64,000 nt of DNA from Acidimicrobiales bacterium (GTDB lineage Bacteria > Actinomycetota > Acidimicrobiia > Acidimicrobiales > SZUA-35), in the NCBI GenBank assembly GCA_020629155.1, contig JAHDDW010000001.1, positions 46,497 through 110,496 on the forward strand, in the 5' to 3' direction. Position 1 is the first letter of the stretch, and each line of letters starts with the position of its first letter. The notes under the pieces were generated by a model. That model searched no databases and had not been told where the DNA came from. It saw nothing but the letters and a program-made list of their open reading frames with translations. The position numbers were made by a program, and so were the translations under genes. Below, piece after piece: positions 24,916 to 33,640 of this stretch.

Positions 24916-25818
24916 CTATTCGATTCGTATAACTACTAAATCTGTCGCTGACGCCATTTCGGCCTGCGGCAACGTCGTTATTGACTGACGATTGCCTACA
25001 ACATGCACCAGCTGCATACCAGCATCTTCGGTCTCTATAATTCCTTTTACACGTACAACGTTTTTATCTGCGGTCAAATCAGCAACTATCTTGTTCAAAG
25101 CAGCAACCGTGAAAGACTCGCCAGTAGGTACTGTTTCTACTTCTACACTGTGTGAATCAAAAAGCGACATCGCTGGAACATCAGCGTCGCTACCATGTTG
25201 GCGACCGCCCAGCTCCAAAATTGCGGCGAAAGCAGACGGCGTCGAAGAATGAACAACTTTTCGTCCTGGAACTAACTGCTCAACACGATTTTCAACCTCA
25301 ACAAGCATCTCGCCAGAAACAAGATCCGTTTTGGTTAATACTAGTAGATCTGCAGCTTCCAACTGGCGTTGAATCTTATAGCCAGTCAGCTCTGAATCGA
25401 TCTGTTCTAAAAACTGTTCGCTATCAACAAGAATTACTACGCCATCGAGTTTGAAACCAGCTGTTGAGGCCCACGGACGCATACGATCGGGCTGCGCGAC
25501 TCCGCTAAGTTCAACGACAATATGGTCTGGCGGTTCTTCACGAGCACGGATTTGGTCAAAGGCTACCTGAAACCCTTCACTAAGGCTGCAACAAACACAC
25601 CCATCGGTAAGCTCGATTGCGTTACCAGAAGATGATTTAATGAGCTTCACATCGATGTTCACAGAACCTACGTCGTTGACAAGAACAGCCAGCTTCAGAT
25701 TGGTTCGGGCAAGCAGTTCATTGAGCAACGTAGTTTTCCCTGATCCAAGATAGCCACCTAGAAAAGTTACTGGCACACGTCTGCCATCCCACGGAGCAAA
25801 ATCGGGTACATATTCCAT
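24916..25818 (-). CDS. CobW/G3E-family GTPase
   Basis: A metal-chaperone-type GTPase. The Walker A motif is FLGGYLGSGKTTLLNELL (about residues 19-36). The metal-binding CxCC motif appears as DGCVCCSLSEG (about residues 73-83). VELSGVAQPDRM and LTKTDLV (G4) follow. The C-terminal domain is short, giving 300 residues. Family members deliver Zn or Co to target enzymes; no zinc transporter or cobalamin gene is nearby, so the client is unknown. Confidence 0.88.
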   Translation of the reverse strand: MEYVPDFAPWDGRRVPVTFLGGYLGSGKTTLLNELLARTNLKLAVLVNDVGSVNIDVKLIKSSSGNAIELTDGCVCCSLSEGFQVAFDQIRAREEPPDHIVVELSGVAQPDRMRPWASTAGFKLDGVVILVDSEQFLEQIDSELTGYKIQRQLEAADLLVLTKTDLVSGEMLVEVENRVEQLVPGRKVVHSSTPSAFAAILELGGRQHGSDADVPAMSLFDSHSVEVETVPTGESFTVAALNKIVADLTADKNVVRVKGIIETEDAGMQLVHVVGNRQSITTLPQAEMASATDLVVIRIE

Positions 25819-25850: not shown

Positions 25851-25941
25851 TTGAGCCATTTGGATAGGCGAGACATGCCAGTTTCGTATCGAACGTTAAT
25901 CGACACAGGCATCAAATATGATCTGTCTACGAAGCATCTCT
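25851..25941 (+). pseudogene. Remnant copy of the PAP2 phosphatase gene
   Basis: Bases 25851-25893 are identical to 27497-27539, the start region of the PAP2 gene, over 43 bp including its ATG. After a junction, 25899-25940 resembles 28073-28117 inside that gene (shared ATCGACACAGGC and TACGAAGC). The roughly 530 bases between those two parts are missing. The remnant is in the same orientation as the intact gene, and fic lies between the two. Confidence 0.8.
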
Positions 25942-25948
25942 ATGTACG

Positions 25949-27334
25949 TTACAGTAATTTTTCATGTAAAATATTTCGCATGGATAGCAACATTTCATCA
26001 ATCCATGTCTCAAGTTGAACTTTCAACATCTGTTTAGGGCGCGGATATACTCGATCAGGAGATACGGCTAACCCAGGCTGCGATTTAGACTGTAGCAAGA
26101 TCTGCAATGCATCGTCACTATCAGCGATGTTGACCTGAATATTGTTTACAATCGTGCTGGCAGATACACCATCTAAAAACATCTGGACAGTGAACCCTTG
26201 ACCAGACGGTCTATACCCTGCCAAAGATACTCTCACAACTGAAGAGTTTAGTAGAGTAACGACAACCGAAGTATCCGCATTAAACTGCTCACACTTTTTT
26301 GCCAATGTAGCGGCTAGAAGCGAATCAAGGCGAGTAGCAGCCGTTTCTATTTCTGTTGCTGCATCCTTATAACTATTTACCAAGTCTGAGGCATTAGCTG
26401 TGCTCATTGTGCTTGCATCTTCGGCAGCAGTGAGACGTAGCCTTCCGACAATGATGCTTAAAAGGTCAAAGGTGATCGTATTTAAGAAAGCAACAAAGGG
26501 TTGATTATCGCCTTTATCTGCCTTGTTTTGCACTGCAAAATAATCGGAAGCATCGTCAGAAAAAATAACTAAAGGCACTGACCATTTGGCTAGCAAAGGA
26601 ATGCTCGCAACGAGACGTGCTGTTCTGCCGTTACCATCTGCAAAAGGGTGGATATGCGTAAGACAGTGATGTATGTAGGCCGACTGTAGAATCGCAGGTG
26701 ATTGCCTGAAATCTTCTTTTTGAAGTTCAGATACAAAACGTTGCATCTCGTTAGGTGTTTCTAAGACAGGTGCATAGTTATGAACAGAACCATCAGCTAG
26801 CATTACATGGTTTGATTGACTTTTATAGACTCCTTTAGGCAATTTCTGTTGCTGGCTAACAATTTGGCCGTCTAGTTCGGTGTGTACTGTGTAGAAGTCT
26901 TGGAAACTGCATACTTTAGCGTGCAACTCACGTAACAGTGCCTCAGAAAACGGTTGCTGTCTTGCCATAACGTCAAGTGCTAGGTCATAGGCAAGGCGTT
27001 GCCCTTGAATAAGTCTTTGCTGCGTTTCATCCTCAATTTTTCGCTTTACTGCTTCAAAGTTGATAACACCATTTAAAACGCTCAGTGTTAGACCTACCGT
27101 CGGTGGATACAAACCTTCCATCGCCCCAGTTTCTAACGCTGCTGCGTCTAGTGTGTTTGCTAGCGCTTCTTGAATACGAGACTCGCCAAGAGTTGTACGC
27201 AAAGAAGTTATTGTTTGAGAGACTTGTTCTATGTTTTGCTCGTCGCTAGCAATGCCAGTAGACCATTGCTCAAATGTTTGGATCGGCGTATATCTATCAT
27301 CTAGATCTGCATCATTTGTAAACAGCGGAGCCAT
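25949..27334 (-). CDS. Fic-domain protein
   Basis: Fic proteins transfer AMP or other phosphate-containing groups to target proteins. The active-site motif HPFADGNGRTARL (about residue 225) is intact, including catalytic His and the anion-binding loop. An N-terminal region (EGLYPPTVGLTLSVLNG) resembles the Fic N-terminal helical domain. Its inhibitory motif is not obvious, and no separate antitoxin gene is adjacent. 461 residues; the C-terminal third is unassigned. It sits between a truncated and an intact PAP2 gene, with a MITE-like element just upstream of its start, so it looks acquired. Confidence 0.88.
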   Translation of the reverse strand: MAPLFTNDADLDDRYTPIQTFEQWSTGIASDEQNIEQVSQTITSLRTTLGESRIQEALANTLDAAALETGAMEGLYPPTVGLTLSVLNGVINFEAVKRKIEDETQQRLIQGQRLAYDLALDVMARQQPFSEALLRELHAKVCSFQDFYTVHTELDGQIVSQQQKLPKGVYKSQSNHVMLADGSVHNYAPVLETPNEMQRFVSELQKEDFRQSPAILQSAYIHHCLTHIHPFADGNGRTARLVASIPLLAKWSVPLVIFSDDASDYFAVQNKADKGDNQPFVAFLNTITFDLLSIIVGRLRLTAAEDASTMSTANASDLVNSYKDAATEIETAATRLDSLLAATLAKKCEQFNADTSVVVTLLNSSVVRVSLAGYRPSGQGFTVQMFLDGVSASTIVNNIQVNIADSDDALQILLQSKSQPGLAVSPDRVYPRPKQMLKVQLETWIDEMLLSMRNILHEKLL

Positions 27335-27338
27335 GTTC

Positions 27339-27464
27339 TTAAGGCTATCTCTGTTTATTCATTTTGTATCGAATCGTTTTACTAGCGAACTGCTAAAACC
27401 TGCGCGGAAACGCCCGAGCGAGCGGAAATATCGAGGGCCATCCACAATTTTTCGAGATGCCCTT
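27339..27464. mobile_element. MITE-like element, copy 2
   Basis: Second copy of the non-coding element at 19281-19406. It shares TTAAGGCTAT.TCTGTTTATT at the left end and GAGATGCCCTT at the right, with a more diverged middle and two one-base gaps. It begins five bases upstream of the fic start codon, so it probably provides or has replaced the fic promoter. The left end has TTAA; the right end reads CTTCAG, so no clean target duplication is visible here. Confidence 0.6.
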
Positions 27465-27520
27465 CAGTATGCCACGCCATACTAAGAACAACGGGTTTGA
27501 GCCATTTGGATAGGCGAGAC

Positions 27521-28417
27521 ATGCCAGTTTCGTATCGAATAACAACGAAGACCATCGCTAAACTGCTGCTACCCATTAGCGTAACTCTTATGGGTTGGTT
27601 GCCATGGAAATATGGAGTTCTGCTAGGGATTATTTGCGTCCTTTTTTCACTATTTTTAAGCAAACACAAAAATCCACACGTCCAACTGATTCGTTCTTTT
27701 CTCAATGAAGCTTCAATTCTTGCTTTTTTATATGCACTTTGGGTATTCGCTGGGAAATTTTCGGTGCTTCGAATTGACAGCGCTATTGCTCGGGGCGAAT
27801 GGCTCTGGCAGCTAGAACGACAGCTCTCTATGCCAAGCGAAAAATGGTTGCAAGAACAGCTCATTGCGCATTCAATTCTTACGCAAAGTGTCAATATCTA
27901 CTATTTTGCTGTGCATGTCCCAGCGATGGGGGTGTTCCTTGTTTGGCTATTTCTGCGTTACCGCAACGACTTTGCCACTTGGCGCAACACGCTGGCAGGT
28001 TTAACTGGCTCTTGCCTTGCTATTCAGTTATTGCCAGTAGCGCCGCCGAGACTTGTCCCCTCACTCGGAGTGATCGACACAGGCGTCGAATATGGCCAGT
28101 CTGTGTACGAAGCACTGAGCTATTCTGCTGCTGGACAATACCAAGCGATGCCTTCAATTCATGTTGGCTGGGCAGCATTAATTGGGTGGGCTGTCTGGAA
28201 ACAGAGTGAAAGTCATTGGCGCTGGCTAGCCGTTGGCCATGCGTTCATCACTTTCTATATTGTCGCTGCAACAGGAAACCATTATTGGCTAGACGGCATC
28301 GCGGCAATTGCACTTATGATTATGATTCATCCTGCCGCTACATGGCTAGCAACGTTCACAGACGAAAACAAAAAAGCGCTAGTTACACGCTTTAGCTTTA
28401 TTCCCAAGAACCTATGA
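27521..28417 (+). CDS. PAP2-superfamily membrane phosphatase/phosphotransferase
   Basis: A polytopic membrane protein of the inositolphosphotransferase-like PAP2 branch. Several hydrophobic helices precede the catalytic motifs QYQAMPSIHVGWAALIGW (second motif, with catalytic His) and GNHYWLDGIAA (third motif). Substrates in this branch are lipid phosphates or prenyl diphosphates. I place the start at ATG 27521; a TTG at 27497 is in frame but has no Shine-Dalgarno. 298 residues. A broken copy of its 5' end lies beyond fic at 25,851. Confidence 0.82.
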   Translation: MPVSYRITTKTIAKLLLPISVTLMGWLPWKYGVLLGIICVLFSLFLSKHKNPHVQLIRSFLNEASILAFLYALWVFAGKFSVLRIDSAIARGEWLWQLERQLSMPSEKWLQEQLIAHSILTQSVNIYYFAVHVPAMGVFLVWLFLRYRNDFATWRNTLAGLTGSCLAIQLLPVAPPRLVPSLGVIDTGVEYGQSVYEALSYSAAGQYQAMPSIHVGWAALIGWAVWKQSESHWRWLAVGHAFITFYIVAATGNHYWLDGIAAIALMIMIHPAATWLATFTDENKKALVTRFSFIPKNL

Positions 28418-28499: not shown

Positions 28500-29222
28500 T
28501 TAGCCCTTTATTGCTGGGGTGGTTTGAACAGCGCGTTGCAGGGCAAGCACTTCTTTGGGTTGCAGCAGGCGATAGCCGCCTGGAGCAAGGTTCGGATCTT
28601 TTAACGGGCCGATCTGTGTCCGCACTAGACGAGTCACTTTGTGACCAACTGCATCACACATCCGTCGCACTTGACGATTCTTGCCTTCATGGATAGTTAT
28701 CCGCAATGCTTCAGGAGCTAACAACGCAACTTTAGCAGGCGCTGTCATGCCATCATCAAGTTCTACCCCTTCACGCAATTGACGCAACGCCGCCCGACTT
28801 GGCGTGCCTTGCACCTGCACCACATACTCTTTTTCGACACCAAACGACGGGTGTGTCAACCGATGCGCTAACGCTCCATCATTTGTCAACAAAAGCAGCC
28901 CTTCTGAGTCCATATCTAACCTGCCGACAGGAAATATGCGCACCTCATCAGGCACAAGAGAAGTAACGACTTTACGCCCATGCGTATCAGAAGCAGTAGT
29001 TACAACACCTGTTGGTTTGTTTAACAAATAGGTAACGGCATCAGGTTTGGCCGACAAGACGCTACCATCGACAGTGATCTCGTCATCTTCACTTGCTTTA
29101 TCGCCGAGCGTAGCGACTTTCTGATTCAGAAGGACTCGCCCTTCGGCAATCATTTCTTCACATACTCGACGGCTCGCAACGCCAATACGCGCCATCACTT
29201 TTTGCAAACGCTCTTGTGTCAT
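28500..29222 (-). CDS. rluB: Ribosomal large-subunit pseudouridine synthase B
   Basis: An RsuA/RluB-type pseudouridine synthase that modifies 23S rRNA. The N-terminal S4 domain (LQKVMARIGVASRRVCEEMIAEGRVLLNQ) precedes the catalytic PVGRLDMDSEGLLLLTNDG (catalytic Asp) and GKNRQVRRMCDAVGHKVTRLVRTQIG. 240 residues. The ATG overlaps the scpB stop by four bases (ATGA). The order scpA-scpB-rluB is common in Gram-positive bacteria. Confidence 0.93.
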   Translation of the reverse strand: MTQERLQKVMARIGVASRRVCEEMIAEGRVLLNQKVATLGDKASEDDEITVDGSVLSAKPDAVTYLLNKPTGVVTTASDTHGRKVVTSLVPDEVRIFPVGRLDMDSEGLLLLTNDGALAHRLTHPSFGVEKEYVVQVQGTPSRAALRQLREGVELDDGMTAPAKVALLAPEALRITIHEGKNRQVRRMCDAVGHKVTRLVRTQIGPLKDPNLAPGGYRLLQPKEVLALQRAVQTTPAIKG

Positions 29223-29995
29223 GCTGCTGCGTTGTCCTCAGGTTGCCCAAGCTCCGATTGTTCTGACTCTGATTGTTCTGACCCAGCACCCTCGACAACC
29301 GCTATATCTTCTTTGCTTTGCGCTTCAGCAGATGGCTCTGATTCATCACCAACGAGAAGCGTCTGTTCTAATGCTTCAACCATTTGCGCAGACGGAACGA
29401 AATCACCTAACGGCGGCAACGACGCAAGCGACGGCAAACCAAGCTGTTCTAAGAAAAACTGGCTTGTTCCTAAAAGTGTTGCCTGTCCAGGGCCATCATC
29501 TTGACCTTTTTCTTCGATATAGCCGCGCTGCAACAACGTACGCAGCACACCATCGGCATTTACGCCTCTTATAGCGCTCACTTGCGAACGAGACAACGGC
29601 TGTTTGTAAGCGACGATTGAAAGGGTTTCAAGCGCAGCAGATGACAGTCTCGTAGCAGACCCTTCCATAGCAAACCGCTCAACATATTCAGCTAAATCTT
29701 CCCTGGTCTGATAACGCCAGCCACCTGCTACATGAGCAAACGAAAAACCAGACCGACGAGCATCGTAATCATCTGCTAACTCTTGACAGTGTTTAGCAAT
29801 AACGTTGACAGACAACTCTAGAAGTTGTGCAAGTAACTGCTCGGGCACAGGACTAGCAGAAACTAAAACAATAGCTTCAATAGCTCTTTTCGCTTCCGAA
29901 AAGTCATGCGGAACAGCCACTTTTTCTCGCAAATCGATCGCTGCGTCAGCCGATACCACTTCTTCTAGCTTTTCTTCAGTTTGCATCTCTGCCAT
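29219..29995 (-). CDS. scpB: Segregation and condensation protein B
   Basis: Kleisin-associated winged-helix subunit of the SMC condensin, needed for chromosome compaction and segregation. The core reads AIEAIVLVSASPVPEQLLAQLL, GWRYQTREDLAEYVERF and LSIVAYKQPLSRSQVSAIRGVN, typical of ScpB. I use ATG 29995, four bases beyond the scpA stop and preceded by AAGGG; a further in-frame ATG at 30010 would overlap scpA. The C-terminal 40 residues are Ser/Glu/Gln-rich and likely disordered. Confidence 0.93.
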   Translation of the reverse strand: MAEMQTEEKLEEVVSADAAIDLREKVAVPHDFSEAKRAIEAIVLVSASPVPEQLLAQLLELSVNVIAKHCQELADDYDARRSGFSFAHVAGGWRYQTREDLAEYVERFAMEGSATRLSSAALETLSIVAYKQPLSRSQVSAIRGVNADGVLRTLLQRGYIEEKGQDDGPGQATLLGTSQFFLEQLGLPSLASLPPLGDFVPSAQMVEALEQTLLVGDESEPSAEAQSKEDIAVVEGAGSEQSESEQSELGQPEDNAAA

Positions 29996-29999
29996 TTCT

Positions 30000-30779
30000 T
30001 TACCCTTCATAACTATCTACGCCTGCTAATGCCATTTCACCTGAGGCATTGTCGCCAGCCCAGCTGATCGACAGATCGCCGAAACATTCTTGCTGCTCAA
30101 GCACAACAAGACCCTGTTTAAATAGTTCTAACACGGCGAGAAAACGTACAACAACTTCGAGGCGTTCCATATCTTCATCGATAAACGATCGAAATGTTTG
30201 CTTGCCTGCGTCAGGCAACACGGCAGCAAACTCGCTGATAGCGTCAGCGACACTCACCTTGATTTTTGCGACATGGTGCAACGATACTTGCGGACGAGGT
30301 TTTTCAGATGCGACCCGCAGGAACGCTCGCCGCAATTTAGCTGTTGTCATCCCCGCAAGCGGATCAGGCGAAAGATCAAGAAACTGCTCTTCCAAACCAC
30401 TGGTTCTAGGCACGACAAGCTGCGCTTGTTCAAAAAGAGCAACAAGCACTTTGGAAGCGTCTTTAAACGTTTTACATTCCAAAAGACGAGATAGCAATAA
30501 ATCTCGTTCTTCCCAAAGACCAAGCTCTTCGTCTAAGTCGTGCTCTTTATCGCTTGGCAATAAACGACGACATTTAAGCTCGATGAGTGTCGAGGCAATC
30601 AGAAGAAACTCTGTAGATATTTCTAAATCATACGTTTCCATTTTGGCGAGCTCGGCCAGATAGGCATCAACAATTTCACCAAGTTTAATCTCGTAAAGGT
30701 CGACATCGTTTTTCAAAATAAGATGCAACAGCAGGTCAAACGGACCTTGGAATACTTCTGTTTCGACCTTATACGACAC
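30000..30779 (-). CDS. scpA: Segregation and condensation protein A
   Basis: The kleisin subunit that bridges SMC heads. The N-terminus FQGPFDLLLHLILKNDVDLYEI and the following ISTEFLLIASTLIELKCRRLLP are diagnostic. A C-terminal winged-helix part (FLAVLELFKQGLVVLEQQECFGDL) is present. GTG start at 30779, 259 residues. First gene of the scpA-scpB-rluB operon. No parA or smc gene is in the window. Confidence 0.93.
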   Translation of the reverse strand: MSYKVETEVFQGPFDLLLHLILKNDVDLYEIKLGEIVDAYLAELAKMETYDLEISTEFLLIASTLIELKCRRLLPSDKEHDLDEELGLWEERDLLLSRLLECKTFKDASKVLVALFEQAQLVVPRTSGLEEQFLDLSPDPLAGMTTAKLRRAFLRVASEKPRPQVSLHHVAKIKVSVADAISEFAAVLPDAGKQTFRSFIDEDMERLEVVVRFLAVLELFKQGLVVLEQQECFGDLSISWAGDNASGEMALAGVDSYEG

Positions 30780-30900: not shown

Positions 30901-32166
30901 CTATGTACCTTTGTAGTTCAAAATAGTTTCTAGTCGATGTTCAATGTCAACAAGGTCACGCTGGTTTGCCATAACTTCACTGATGTCTTTATAGGCATCT
31001 GGATGTTCGTCAAGTAAGGCATCGGCGTTGTCGTTCCAGGCAATATTTTCCATGCGTGTTTGCAACGACTCGGTGCTTAACTGCTTGCGCGCCGCACGAC
31101 GCGACAATCTACGTCCAGCACCATGGGAAGCTGAACGATACGATGCGGCGTTGCCCAAACCAGACACAATAAACGACCCTGTCGCCATTGAACCGGGGAT
31201 CACACCCCAGTTACCGAGCGACGCATCGATAGCGCCTTTGCGAGTAACCCACACTTGCTGGCCACCGTGGGATTCACATGACGCATAGTTATGGTGACAC
31301 TGAATCTGTTTGCCCTCAGCCACGAAACCTACCTTCATTCCAGCAGCTTCCATAACCTTGCCGACAACACCAAGCACTGCTTTCATCATCTGCGCACGGT
31401 TTTCAAACGCATAATCTTGCGCCCATAACATGCCATCGATATAGCGAGCAAACTCGTCGGTGCCTTGCACAAACGAAGCCAAATCAGGATCTTCAAGCGG
31501 TGTGTCTAACGCTTTTTTCATCATGTTTCGAGCACGTCCGATATGTTCTTGTGCAAACAAGTTTCCAGGGCCACGCGAACCTGAATGAAGCACTATCCAT
31601 ACCTGGTCTGTTTCGTCGGTTGCCAACTCGATGAAGTGGTTACCTCCACCAAGTGTTCCGAACTGACCCGATATTTTCTTTGCGTTAAACTTCTCGCTTC
31701 GCACATCAGGAGCATCGCGAATCAGCTGTTCAAGCTTTTTAGAACGCACCGCACGGTCGTGTGACCCAGCAGTTCGTTTCCCTTTGCGAGGTTGGCCAGC
31801 TGGCACCGCTTTCGCAATCTGTGCATGCATTTTTGGCAGCTGCGCATCGACCTGATCACGAGTAAACACCGTTTTTTGGGCGATCATACCGCAACCAATA
31901 TCGACACCAACCGCTGCTGGAATGATCGCATCTTTTGTTGCAACGACCGAACCGATTGTTGCGCCCATGCCAACATGCGCATCAGCCATCAACGCTAGAG
32001 GTTTCTCAACGATAGATAACGCTGCTGTTCGCTGCGCCTGCGCTAACGTGCCACCGTCAAGGTCACTCGCCCAGCTCAGCACGTTACCTTGCTGCATTGG
32101 AAGCTCTCGCGATTTCTCGTTCTGCACGTTTTGTTCGTTTACTGAAGTATCTTGTGAATCTATCAT
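30901..32166 (-). CDS. rtcB: RtcB-family RNA ligase
   Basis: Joins 2',3'-cyclic phosphate (or 3'-phosphate) and 5'-OH RNA ends using GTP and Mn. Metal and guanylylation motifs are visible: VGVDIGCGM (metal Cys), GTLGGGNHFIEL, VLHSGSRGPGN, and near the C-terminus SYRSASHGAGR with GRRLSRRAAR. I choose ATG 32166 because GGAGGTGCC precedes it at ideal spacing; an upstream in-frame start at 32193 lies beyond that ribosome site. 421 residues. No archease or RtcA/RtcR gene is nearby. A truncated copy of its 5' end lies at 33,345-33,640. Confidence 0.92.
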   Translation of the reverse strand: MIDSQDTSVNEQNVQNEKSRELPMQQGNVLSWASDLDGGTLAQAQRTAALSIVEKPLALMADAHVGMGATIGSVVATKDAIIPAAVGVDIGCGMIAQKTVFTRDQVDAQLPKMHAQIAKAVPAGQPRKGKRTAGSHDRAVRSKKLEQLIRDAPDVRSEKFNAKKISGQFGTLGGGNHFIELATDETDQVWIVLHSGSRGPGNLFAQEHIGRARNMMKKALDTPLEDPDLASFVQGTDEFARYIDGMLWAQDYAFENRAQMMKAVLGVVGKVMEAAGMKVGFVAEGKQIQCHHNYASCESHGGQQVWVTRKGAIDASLGNWGVIPGSMATGSFIVSGLGNAASYRSASHGAGRRLSRRAARKQLSTESLQTRMENIAWNDNADALLDEHPDAYKDISEVMANQRDLVDIEHRLETILNYKGT

Positions 32167-32230
32167 TGTTGGCACCTCCTTACGGGCCGACACACCAACA
32201 TAGACCTAGTTCAAAACTTGAGCAAACGAA

Positions 32231-33217
32231 TTAACTAAGGCGACGCCGCAAAGGTATAGCCCAGCGAGCAAAACGCATTTTTTGATAAAATGTGTTTCTA
32301 ATTTGCTTCCGCTCTTTCCAAACCTGAGCAAAGACGATCCCAACCATTATTGCCACTGCTAAAGAAAGAAAAGGGTTCGGGTTAGTGATAAGTTTGCTCA
32401 AAAAACTTTTCGCCTGAAAATGACACAAATAAATAAACAACGAGCTCAACGCAATCTTCGTTACAAGACCTACCAATAGTTCTGGGAACTTAATCGTTGA
32501 GGTCCACAACGCAGCAAAACCACCAATTAATAGCAACGGAGCAATCGTTGACTGTTCAAATAACAGAGGCGATGACACCAAAATAATTGATGTGCTAGCA
32601 AGCAGCTTTTGTTTCATAGAATCGCTATATGCGATCAATCCACCTAGGACGAAAATGGGAAAGTAAAGATGCGGCAAACGATTAAGCAGATCTGATGTAT
32701 CAAAGAAATACATAGAAGCTGTTCTCACCATAAATGAAATCAGTACAGCTCCTAAGAAAAAGTTAAAAGGTTGAGCAAATAGGTACCGCCGAGTTGGCCC
32801 ATACGCTAGTAAGACGCCGAGAAGAACAAACATTTGCACGAGCACGTCAATGAACCAATACGTTAACCCTCCTGCATAGCCAGGACCCACAAAATTGCTT
32901 ACAAAAAATATGCTATAGACATGAAATTCGCGTACAAGAATGAACACAAAACCTATATAAAGAACGCTAGGAACTAAAAGTTTTCGCATATAACGCCCGT
33001 ATGGTTGCAGATACTGTGTCGTTTTTGTGTTGGCAGAAGTGTTAATTTTAGGCATCATAAACTGCACAAAATTATACCCAGAAAGAAGAAAAAGATATCC
33101 CGATCCTCCTGGCAAGTTCAACGCACCAAAATGGCTAGCCACTATTGAAATAATTGCGAATGCACGAAACAAAATGGAAACATCAAGCTCGACCAAAGAC
33201 AGTCTTTCTAGCTTCAT
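32231..33217 (-). CDS. Acyltransferase 3-family membrane protein
   Basis: An integral membrane O-acyltransferase of the OafA/NodX type, about ten hydrophobic segments in 328 residues. The N-terminal RAFAIISIVASHFGALNLPGGSG places the conserved Arg and His, followed by LFLLSGYNFVQFMMP. Such enzymes acetylate cell-surface sugars. The gene looks AT-rich compared with rtcB. It is flanked by intact rtcB on one side and a truncated rtcB copy on the other, so it is probably an insertion. A run of eight G residues lies just before the ATG. Confidence 0.8.
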   Translation of the reverse strand: MKLERLSLVELDVSILFRAFAIISIVASHFGALNLPGGSGYLFLLSGYNFVQFMMPKINTSANTKTTQYLQPYGRYMRKLLVPSVLYIGFVFILVREFHVYSIFFVSNFVGPGYAGGLTYWFIDVLVQMFVLLGVLLAYGPTRRYLFAQPFNFFLGAVLISFMVRTASMYFFDTSDLLNRLPHLYFPIFVLGGLIAYSDSMKQKLLASTSIILVSSPLLFEQSTIAPLLLIGGFAALWTSTIKFPELLVGLVTKIALSSLFIYLCHFQAKSFLSKLITNPNPFLSLAVAIMVGIVFAQVWKERKQIRNTFYQKMRFARWAIPLRRRLS

Positions 33218-33344: not shown

Positions 33345-33640
33345 CTGCGCCCATGCCAACGTGCGTATCAGCCATCAACGCTAGAGGTTTCTCAACGATA
33401 GATAACGCTGCTGTTCGCTGCGCCTGCGCTAACGTGCCACCATCAAGGTCACTCGCCCAGCTGAGCACGTTGCCTTGCAACATCGGAAGCTCTTACTTCT
33501 CGCTTTGTTTTTTCTGTTCATCTGCTGTGTGCTGTGGATCTATCATCGGTGGCACCTCATCATAGCTCAGACGCCGCTAGGGCTAACAGCCGACACAAAA
33601 ACAAACATAGACCTTGTTCAAAACCTGAGCAAGTTAAATT
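33345..33640 (-). pseudogene. Truncated copy of the rtcB 5' region
   Basis: This stretch matches rtcB codons 1 to about 75 plus its leader (31,960-32,232). The inner part (33,346-33,478) differs at only about five positions by eye; the 5' coding part is more diverged. The start ATG (33547) persists, but a TAA stops translation after 17 codons, and the Shine-Dalgarno is lost. Homology ends after ...THVGMGA. It is in the same orientation as rtcB and occupies most of the 420-bp gap between the acyltransferase and OtsA-like genes; nothing else is seen there. Confidence 0.85.

What the first reader, a model, noticed from the sequence alone, without database searches (positions are those of the whole stretch)
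25851..28417. fic gene bracketed by a remnant and the intact PAP2 gene
A perfect 43-bp direct repeat (25851-25893 = 27497-27539) covers the PAP2 start codon region. The left copy then jumps to sequence like PAP2 position 28,073-28,117, so it is an internally deleted PAP2 copy. The fic gene and a MITE-like element sit between them. The design equals that at rtcB.
Basis: seen in the sequence. Interest (0 to 1): 0.62.

Follow-up and report, generated by a model that had tools for sequence, protein, structure and literature searches.

The report
Gene insertion scar beside PAP2 gene
A fic gene was dropped in next to a membrane phosphatase gene, leaving a 43-base duplicate of that gene's start and a small broken piece of it behind; this is a scar of one-sided DNA integration of a known kind, and this genome carries several more like it.

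Summary
A perfect 43-bp direct repeat (25851-25893 = 27497-27539) brackets a complete fic gene and occurs nowhere else in the genome. Five bases after the left copy comes a block matching PAP2-internal sequence 28073-28114, in frame (0 of 3000 shuffles score as high). The "MITE-like" sequence at about 27342-27464 is a dispersed repeat with about 40 matches in this genome and none in 40 relatives searched. The rtcB parallel is also real.

Interpretation is partly supported. The two blocks do not look equally old (0 events in 43 columns versus 5 in 39; MaxChi p = 0.016), so one duplication plus one deletion is not enough. Better: one-sided (single-crossover) integration. The identical block marks the crossover or duplicated host segment, the diverged block came with the donor, and fic is cargo. 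rtcB is also mosaic (p = 0.003).

In 1.07 Mb of this genome I count about eight such bracketed accessory genes; close repeats are 14 direct to 1 inverted. Closest known kinds: homology-facilitated illegitimate recombination and "insertion with long target duplication". No empty site was found in relatives. Ordinary mechanism, mildly notable density.

The parts
24916..25818 (-). CobW-family GTPase gene, the outer neighbour of the remnant
   Evidence: Pfam cobW E 5e-44
25851..25893 (+). left copy of the exact 43-bp direct repeat (PAP2 translation-start region)
25894..25898 (+). 5-base filler CGTTA between the two blocks of the remnant
25899..25936 (+). diverged PAP2-internal block, similar to 28073-28114, in frame with the 43-bp block
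   Evidence: 0 of 3000 shuffles reach its score; E 2.6e-4 genome-wide
25949..27334 (-). fic cargo gene, 461 aa, motif HPFADGNGRTAR, TGAMEG inhibitory-type motif upstream
   Evidence: Pfam Fic; full-length 30% homologue in Mycobacterium phage WST1; motifs read from the translation
27342..27464 (.). dispersed repeat of about 120-130 bp with imperfect terminal inverted repeats (GGCTATCTCT / AGAGATGCCCT); now lies between the fic and PAP2 starts
27497..27539 (+). right copy of the 43-bp repeat
27497..28417 (+). intact PAP2_3 gene (start probably ATG 27521)
   Evidence: Pfam PAP2_3 E 1e-35; homologue core begins at about 27590
28073..28114 (+). PAP2-internal stretch matched by the diverged block of the remnant
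30901..32193 (-). intact rtcB, parallel case
   Evidence: Pfam RtcB E 5e-103
32231..33217 (-). cargo of the rtcB case: acyltransferase-3-like gene (just under the Pfam cut-off)
33346..33632 (-). rtcB remnant: leader and codons 1-78; codons 1-34 and leader diverged with 3-base gaps, codons 36-78 about 96% identical

Best explanation
The locus is a scar of the acquisition of fic by one-sided recombination. A donor DNA carrying fic and a piece of a related PAP2 gene recombined with the resident chromosome at PAP2 on one side only. The other side was closed by an illegitimate join (or the donor was a circle), so a short stretch of resident sequence is now present on both sides of the cargo. The identical 43 bp is the crossover or duplicated host segment. 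The diverged 38-bp block next to fic is what is left of the donor's PAP2. Because the duplicated stretch contains the ribosome-binding site and start codon, the right-hand PAP2 gene stayed complete, but its upstream region is now the dispersed repeat next to fic. Shown here: the anatomy, the non-chance second block, the mosaic at rtcB, the recurrence and the direct-repeat bias. Inferred: the crossover, the donor, the order of events and the effect on expression.
For: Exact 43-bp repeat unique to this locus. Significant, in-frame second block. Identical block followed by diverged block: 0 events in 43 columns versus 5 in 39, MaxChi p = 0.016; rtcB p = 0.003, with 3-base gaps that suggest the remnant diverged while coding. 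About eight similar loci in 1.07 Mb, among them clpS with DUF4160+DUF2442, SulP with a lipoprotein-like gene, a glycosyltransferase with a cluster of further genes, and an M48 peptidase. Close repeats 14 direct versus 1 inverted, and few beyond 6 kb. A comEC-type DNA uptake gene is present. fic has no close homologue in 60 relatives.
Against: No empty site and no donor found. The mosaic at PAP2 rests on five events only, and at clpS the test is not significant (p = 0.30). The internal gap in the remnant needs an extra deletion. Conservation of the left 43 bp as a cobW upstream region could also explain its identity; the promoter scan was uninformative.
Confidence: 0.55

Rival explanations
1. 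Insertion with long target duplication: fic was inserted into the PAP2 start by an unknown recombination process that duplicated 43 bp of target, with no donor copy of PAP2 involved.
For: A clean 43-bp direct repeat flanks 1603 bp. The pattern is described for restriction-modification genes in Helicobacter pylori (PMC1643837, PMC3031569).
Against: It does not explain the PAP2-internal block inside the insert, nor the two divergence levels at rtcB.
Confidence: 0.2
2. Tandem duplication of PAP2 followed by insertion of fic between the copies and decay of the left copy; the 43 bp was kept identical by gene conversion or by selection as cobW upstream DNA.
For: Both blocks are collinear and in frame with PAP2.
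Against: Different divergence of the two blocks. The same outcome at several unrelated genes with unrelated cargo makes separate duplications less likely.
Confidence: 0.17
3. The dispersed repeat or another transposable element carried fic in.
For: The repeat abuts the fic start.
Against: Only one copy is at the locus, none on the fic 3' side, no transposase in the insert, and the rtcB copy of the design has none among the genome-wide matches.
Confidence: 0.04
4. Assembly artefact of a draft genome.
For: The genome is a draft in 59 contigs.
Against: Diverged blocks cannot come from misjoining one sequence; repeats of 26-219 bp with differing identity recur in one orientation.
Confidence: 0.04

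Closest known systems
Homology-facilitated illegitimate recombination (described for Acinetobacter, Streptococcus pneumoniae, Pseudomonas stutzeri; invoked for Vibrio cholerae T6SS effector-immunity arrays, PMC5361080)
   Same: Foreign gene joined by homology on one side and without it on the other, with an old gene fragment left behind.
   Different: Here the host stretch is duplicated rather than deleted, only one state of the site is known, and no transformation experiment exists.
Insertion with long target duplication (Nobusato et al. 2000, cited in PMC1643837 and PMC3031569)
   Same: Accessory gene flanked by a direct repeat of tens of bases or more copied from a resident gene.
   Different: Cargo is fic rather than a restriction-modification system, and a diverged piece of the target gene lies inside the insert.
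Transformation-made merodiploids by bridging of sister chromatids (PMC3784515)
   Same: Incoming DNA pairing on two sides yields a duplication of resident sequence.
   Different: Those duplications span about 100-900 kb; here it is 43 bp.

Membership tests
Homology-facilitated illegitimate recombination | one junction inside a homologous segment | tested here: inconclusive
   Identical block beside diverged block at PAP2 (p = 0.016) and rtcB (p = 0.003), not at clpS (p = 0.30)
Homology-facilitated illegitimate recombination | other junction without extended homology | not testable with these tools
   needs the donor or an empty site; none found
Insertion with long target duplication | insert flanked by a direct repeat of a resident sequence | tested here: met
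   43 of 43 bp, unique in the genome
[quoted passage not shown]
   not found among 39 family genomes; only three genomes in the genus are held
Fic/Doc family, Fic proteins | HPFx(D/E)GNGRxxR catalytic motif and Fic domain | tested here: met
   HPFADGNGRTAR; Pfam Fic 55 bits against cut-off 24
MITE (for 27342-27464) | short, dispersed, non-coding, terminal inverted repeats, target duplication, matching autonomous element | tested here: inconclusive
   about 40 places and imperfect terminal inverted repeats; no clear target duplication; autonomous partner not sought

The most novel reading that the evidence does not exclude
This lineage gains single accessory genes unusually often by one-sided recombination that duplicates the edge of a neighbouring core gene, at about eight readable scars per Mb, so the genome keeps a record of gene-by-gene acquisition with crossover points still legible.
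Probability: 0.2. Interest if true: 0.5.

Novelty: new member of a known kind. Interest (0 to 1): 0.3.

Why it matters
Single-gene acquisition without any mobile element is hard to see in genomes. Scars such as this show where foreign DNA joined, which gene served as anchor, and how a core gene survives because its start or end was duplicated. If the density holds against fair controls, this genome would be a useful place to measure that process.

Tried and rejected
Looked for the fic-free single-PAP2 site in 61 relatives and then in 39 family genomes (36 of them already among the 61): none; G001 lacks this PAP2 and the G007 homologue lies in other surroundings. Neighbourhoods of cobW and rluB in relatives are separate, so no ancestral order could be read. 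mfd flanking repeats (C5 378823/382585) rejected as a dispersed repeat. Hits inside repetitive or paralogous genes (C5 6778, C5 405601, C20 146512) not counted; C1 53628 left unclassified. MaxChi at clpS not significant; at SulP the best break fell at the end of the homology and is not used. No promoter-like site above chance in the repeat region. RNA folding of the dispersed repeat is no better than shuffles, z = 0.54. Rfam: only one tRNA in the window. fic in plasmids: only partial, weak matches.

Full report
Observation. The 43-bp direct repeat is exact and, in a whole-genome search, found only at this locus. The left copy is followed by CGTTA and then by 38 bases that align to 28073-28114 with four substitutions and one 4-base gap. 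This block scores 47; the best of 3000 dinucleotide shuffles and of 1486 random windows scores 27. Both blocks sit in the PAP2 reading frame.

Genes. The window lies in G000, a 3.17-Mb draft genome in 59 contigs; the nearest named relative met is an Acidimicrobiales MAG. fic (25949-27334, -) is complete: Fic domain, canonical motif, and a phage homologue aligning over residues 12-459 of 461. Its best hits in relatives are 33% or weaker partial matches, and this genome has eight places matching Fic. PADLOC's best match is SoFic; solved relatives include 3cuc and human FICD. The upstream TGAMEG fits the inhibitory-motif pattern of self-inhibited Fic enzymes (established knowledge; not tested).

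The repeat between fic and PAP2. Searching 27335-27500 finds 41 places in this genome, most at 73-86% identity. The copies align over about 120-130 bp, with GGCTATCTCT at one end and AGAGATGCCCT at the other. It was not found in 40 relatives, two of the same genus included. It is MITE-like, but no target duplication was established.

rtcB parallel. Leader and codons 1-78 of rtcB recur at 33346-33632, beyond an acyltransferase-like gene. Codons 36-78 differ at 5 of 129 positions; codons 9-35 differ at 21 of 75 (Fisher p = 1e-6), with 3-base gaps. MaxChi p = 0.003. Part of this could reflect a fast-evolving N-terminus; third positions alone still differ (4 of 43 versus 9 of 25, p = 0.011).

Mosaic at PAP2. 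0 events in 43 columns against 5 in 39 gives MaxChi p = 0.016. This disfavours, but does not exclude, one duplicate decaying evenly. At PAP2 the diverged block touches the cargo; at rtcB the identical block does. Both are allowed by one-sided crossover, depending on which side the homologous junction lay.

Recurrence. In 1.074 Mb of this genome, unique repeats at 78% identity or more and spaced 450-6000 bp are 14 direct and 1 inverted; at 6-20 kb 2 and 0. After reading the loci I count about eight bracketed accessory genes: fic/PAP2, acyltransferase/rtcB, DUF4160+DUF2442/clpS, a gene cluster/GT2 glycosyltransferase, lipoprotein-like gene/SulP, M48 peptidase/bactofilin-like gene, AAA-DUF4143 gene (56-bp repeats, 82%), and a pentapeptide-like gene (26-bp repeats). 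This count is a judgement made after seeing the hits. Direct repeats in coding DNA also arise from paralogues, so the 14:1 ratio (sign test p = 0.001) is not specific to insertion. Control stretches gave 2:0 in 400 kb (G042), 0:0 in 300 kb (G007) and 3:1 in 400 kb (G038); two of these are far richer in GC, so the comparison is weak.

Mechanism. One-sided integration accounts for the duplicated host stretch, the foreign piece of PAP2 and the cargo together. Homology-facilitated illegitimate recombination is documented and was invoked for leftover gene arrays in Vibrio cholerae (PMC5361080). Insertion with long target duplication was described in Helicobacter (PMC1643837, PMC3031569). Merodiploid formation by bridging shows how incoming DNA can duplicate resident sequence (PMC3784515). 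A comEC-type gene is present, which permits but does not show DNA uptake.

Limits. No empty site, donor or close strain is available, and the genus has only three genomes held. The order of events, the role of the repeat and the effect on PAP2 expression are inferred.

Noticed in passing
G000 contig C5 170323-175276 (outside the window; window start = C5 46497): CRISPR-like array: about 48 copies of a 37-38-bp repeat at about 72-bp spacing (171836-175276), with one lone repeat about 1.5 kb before it.
   Followed up: no
27342-27464 and about 40 places in G000: Dispersed repeat of about 120-130 bp seen only in this genome among 41 searched.
   Followed up: partly
G000 contig C5 403412-408995: Patchwork beside a glycosyltransferase: a 151-bp exact copy from the right flank joined to 78- and 59-bp copies (97-100%) from the left flank with 190 bp between them left out.
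   Followed up: partly
G000 contig C5 413687-414678: clpS preceded by a diverged copy of its own 5' end, with a DUF4160+DUF2442 pair between.
   Followed up: partly
G000 contig C5 378823-378970 and 382585-382733: Another dispersed repeat (CATCCCCAACTCGATCCCGT...) flanking mfd.
   Followed up: no
28500-30779: rluB-scpB-scpA is conserved in relatives, but what follows rluB there (chorismate mutase, then a dehydrogenase) is replaced here by PAP2.
   Followed up: partly
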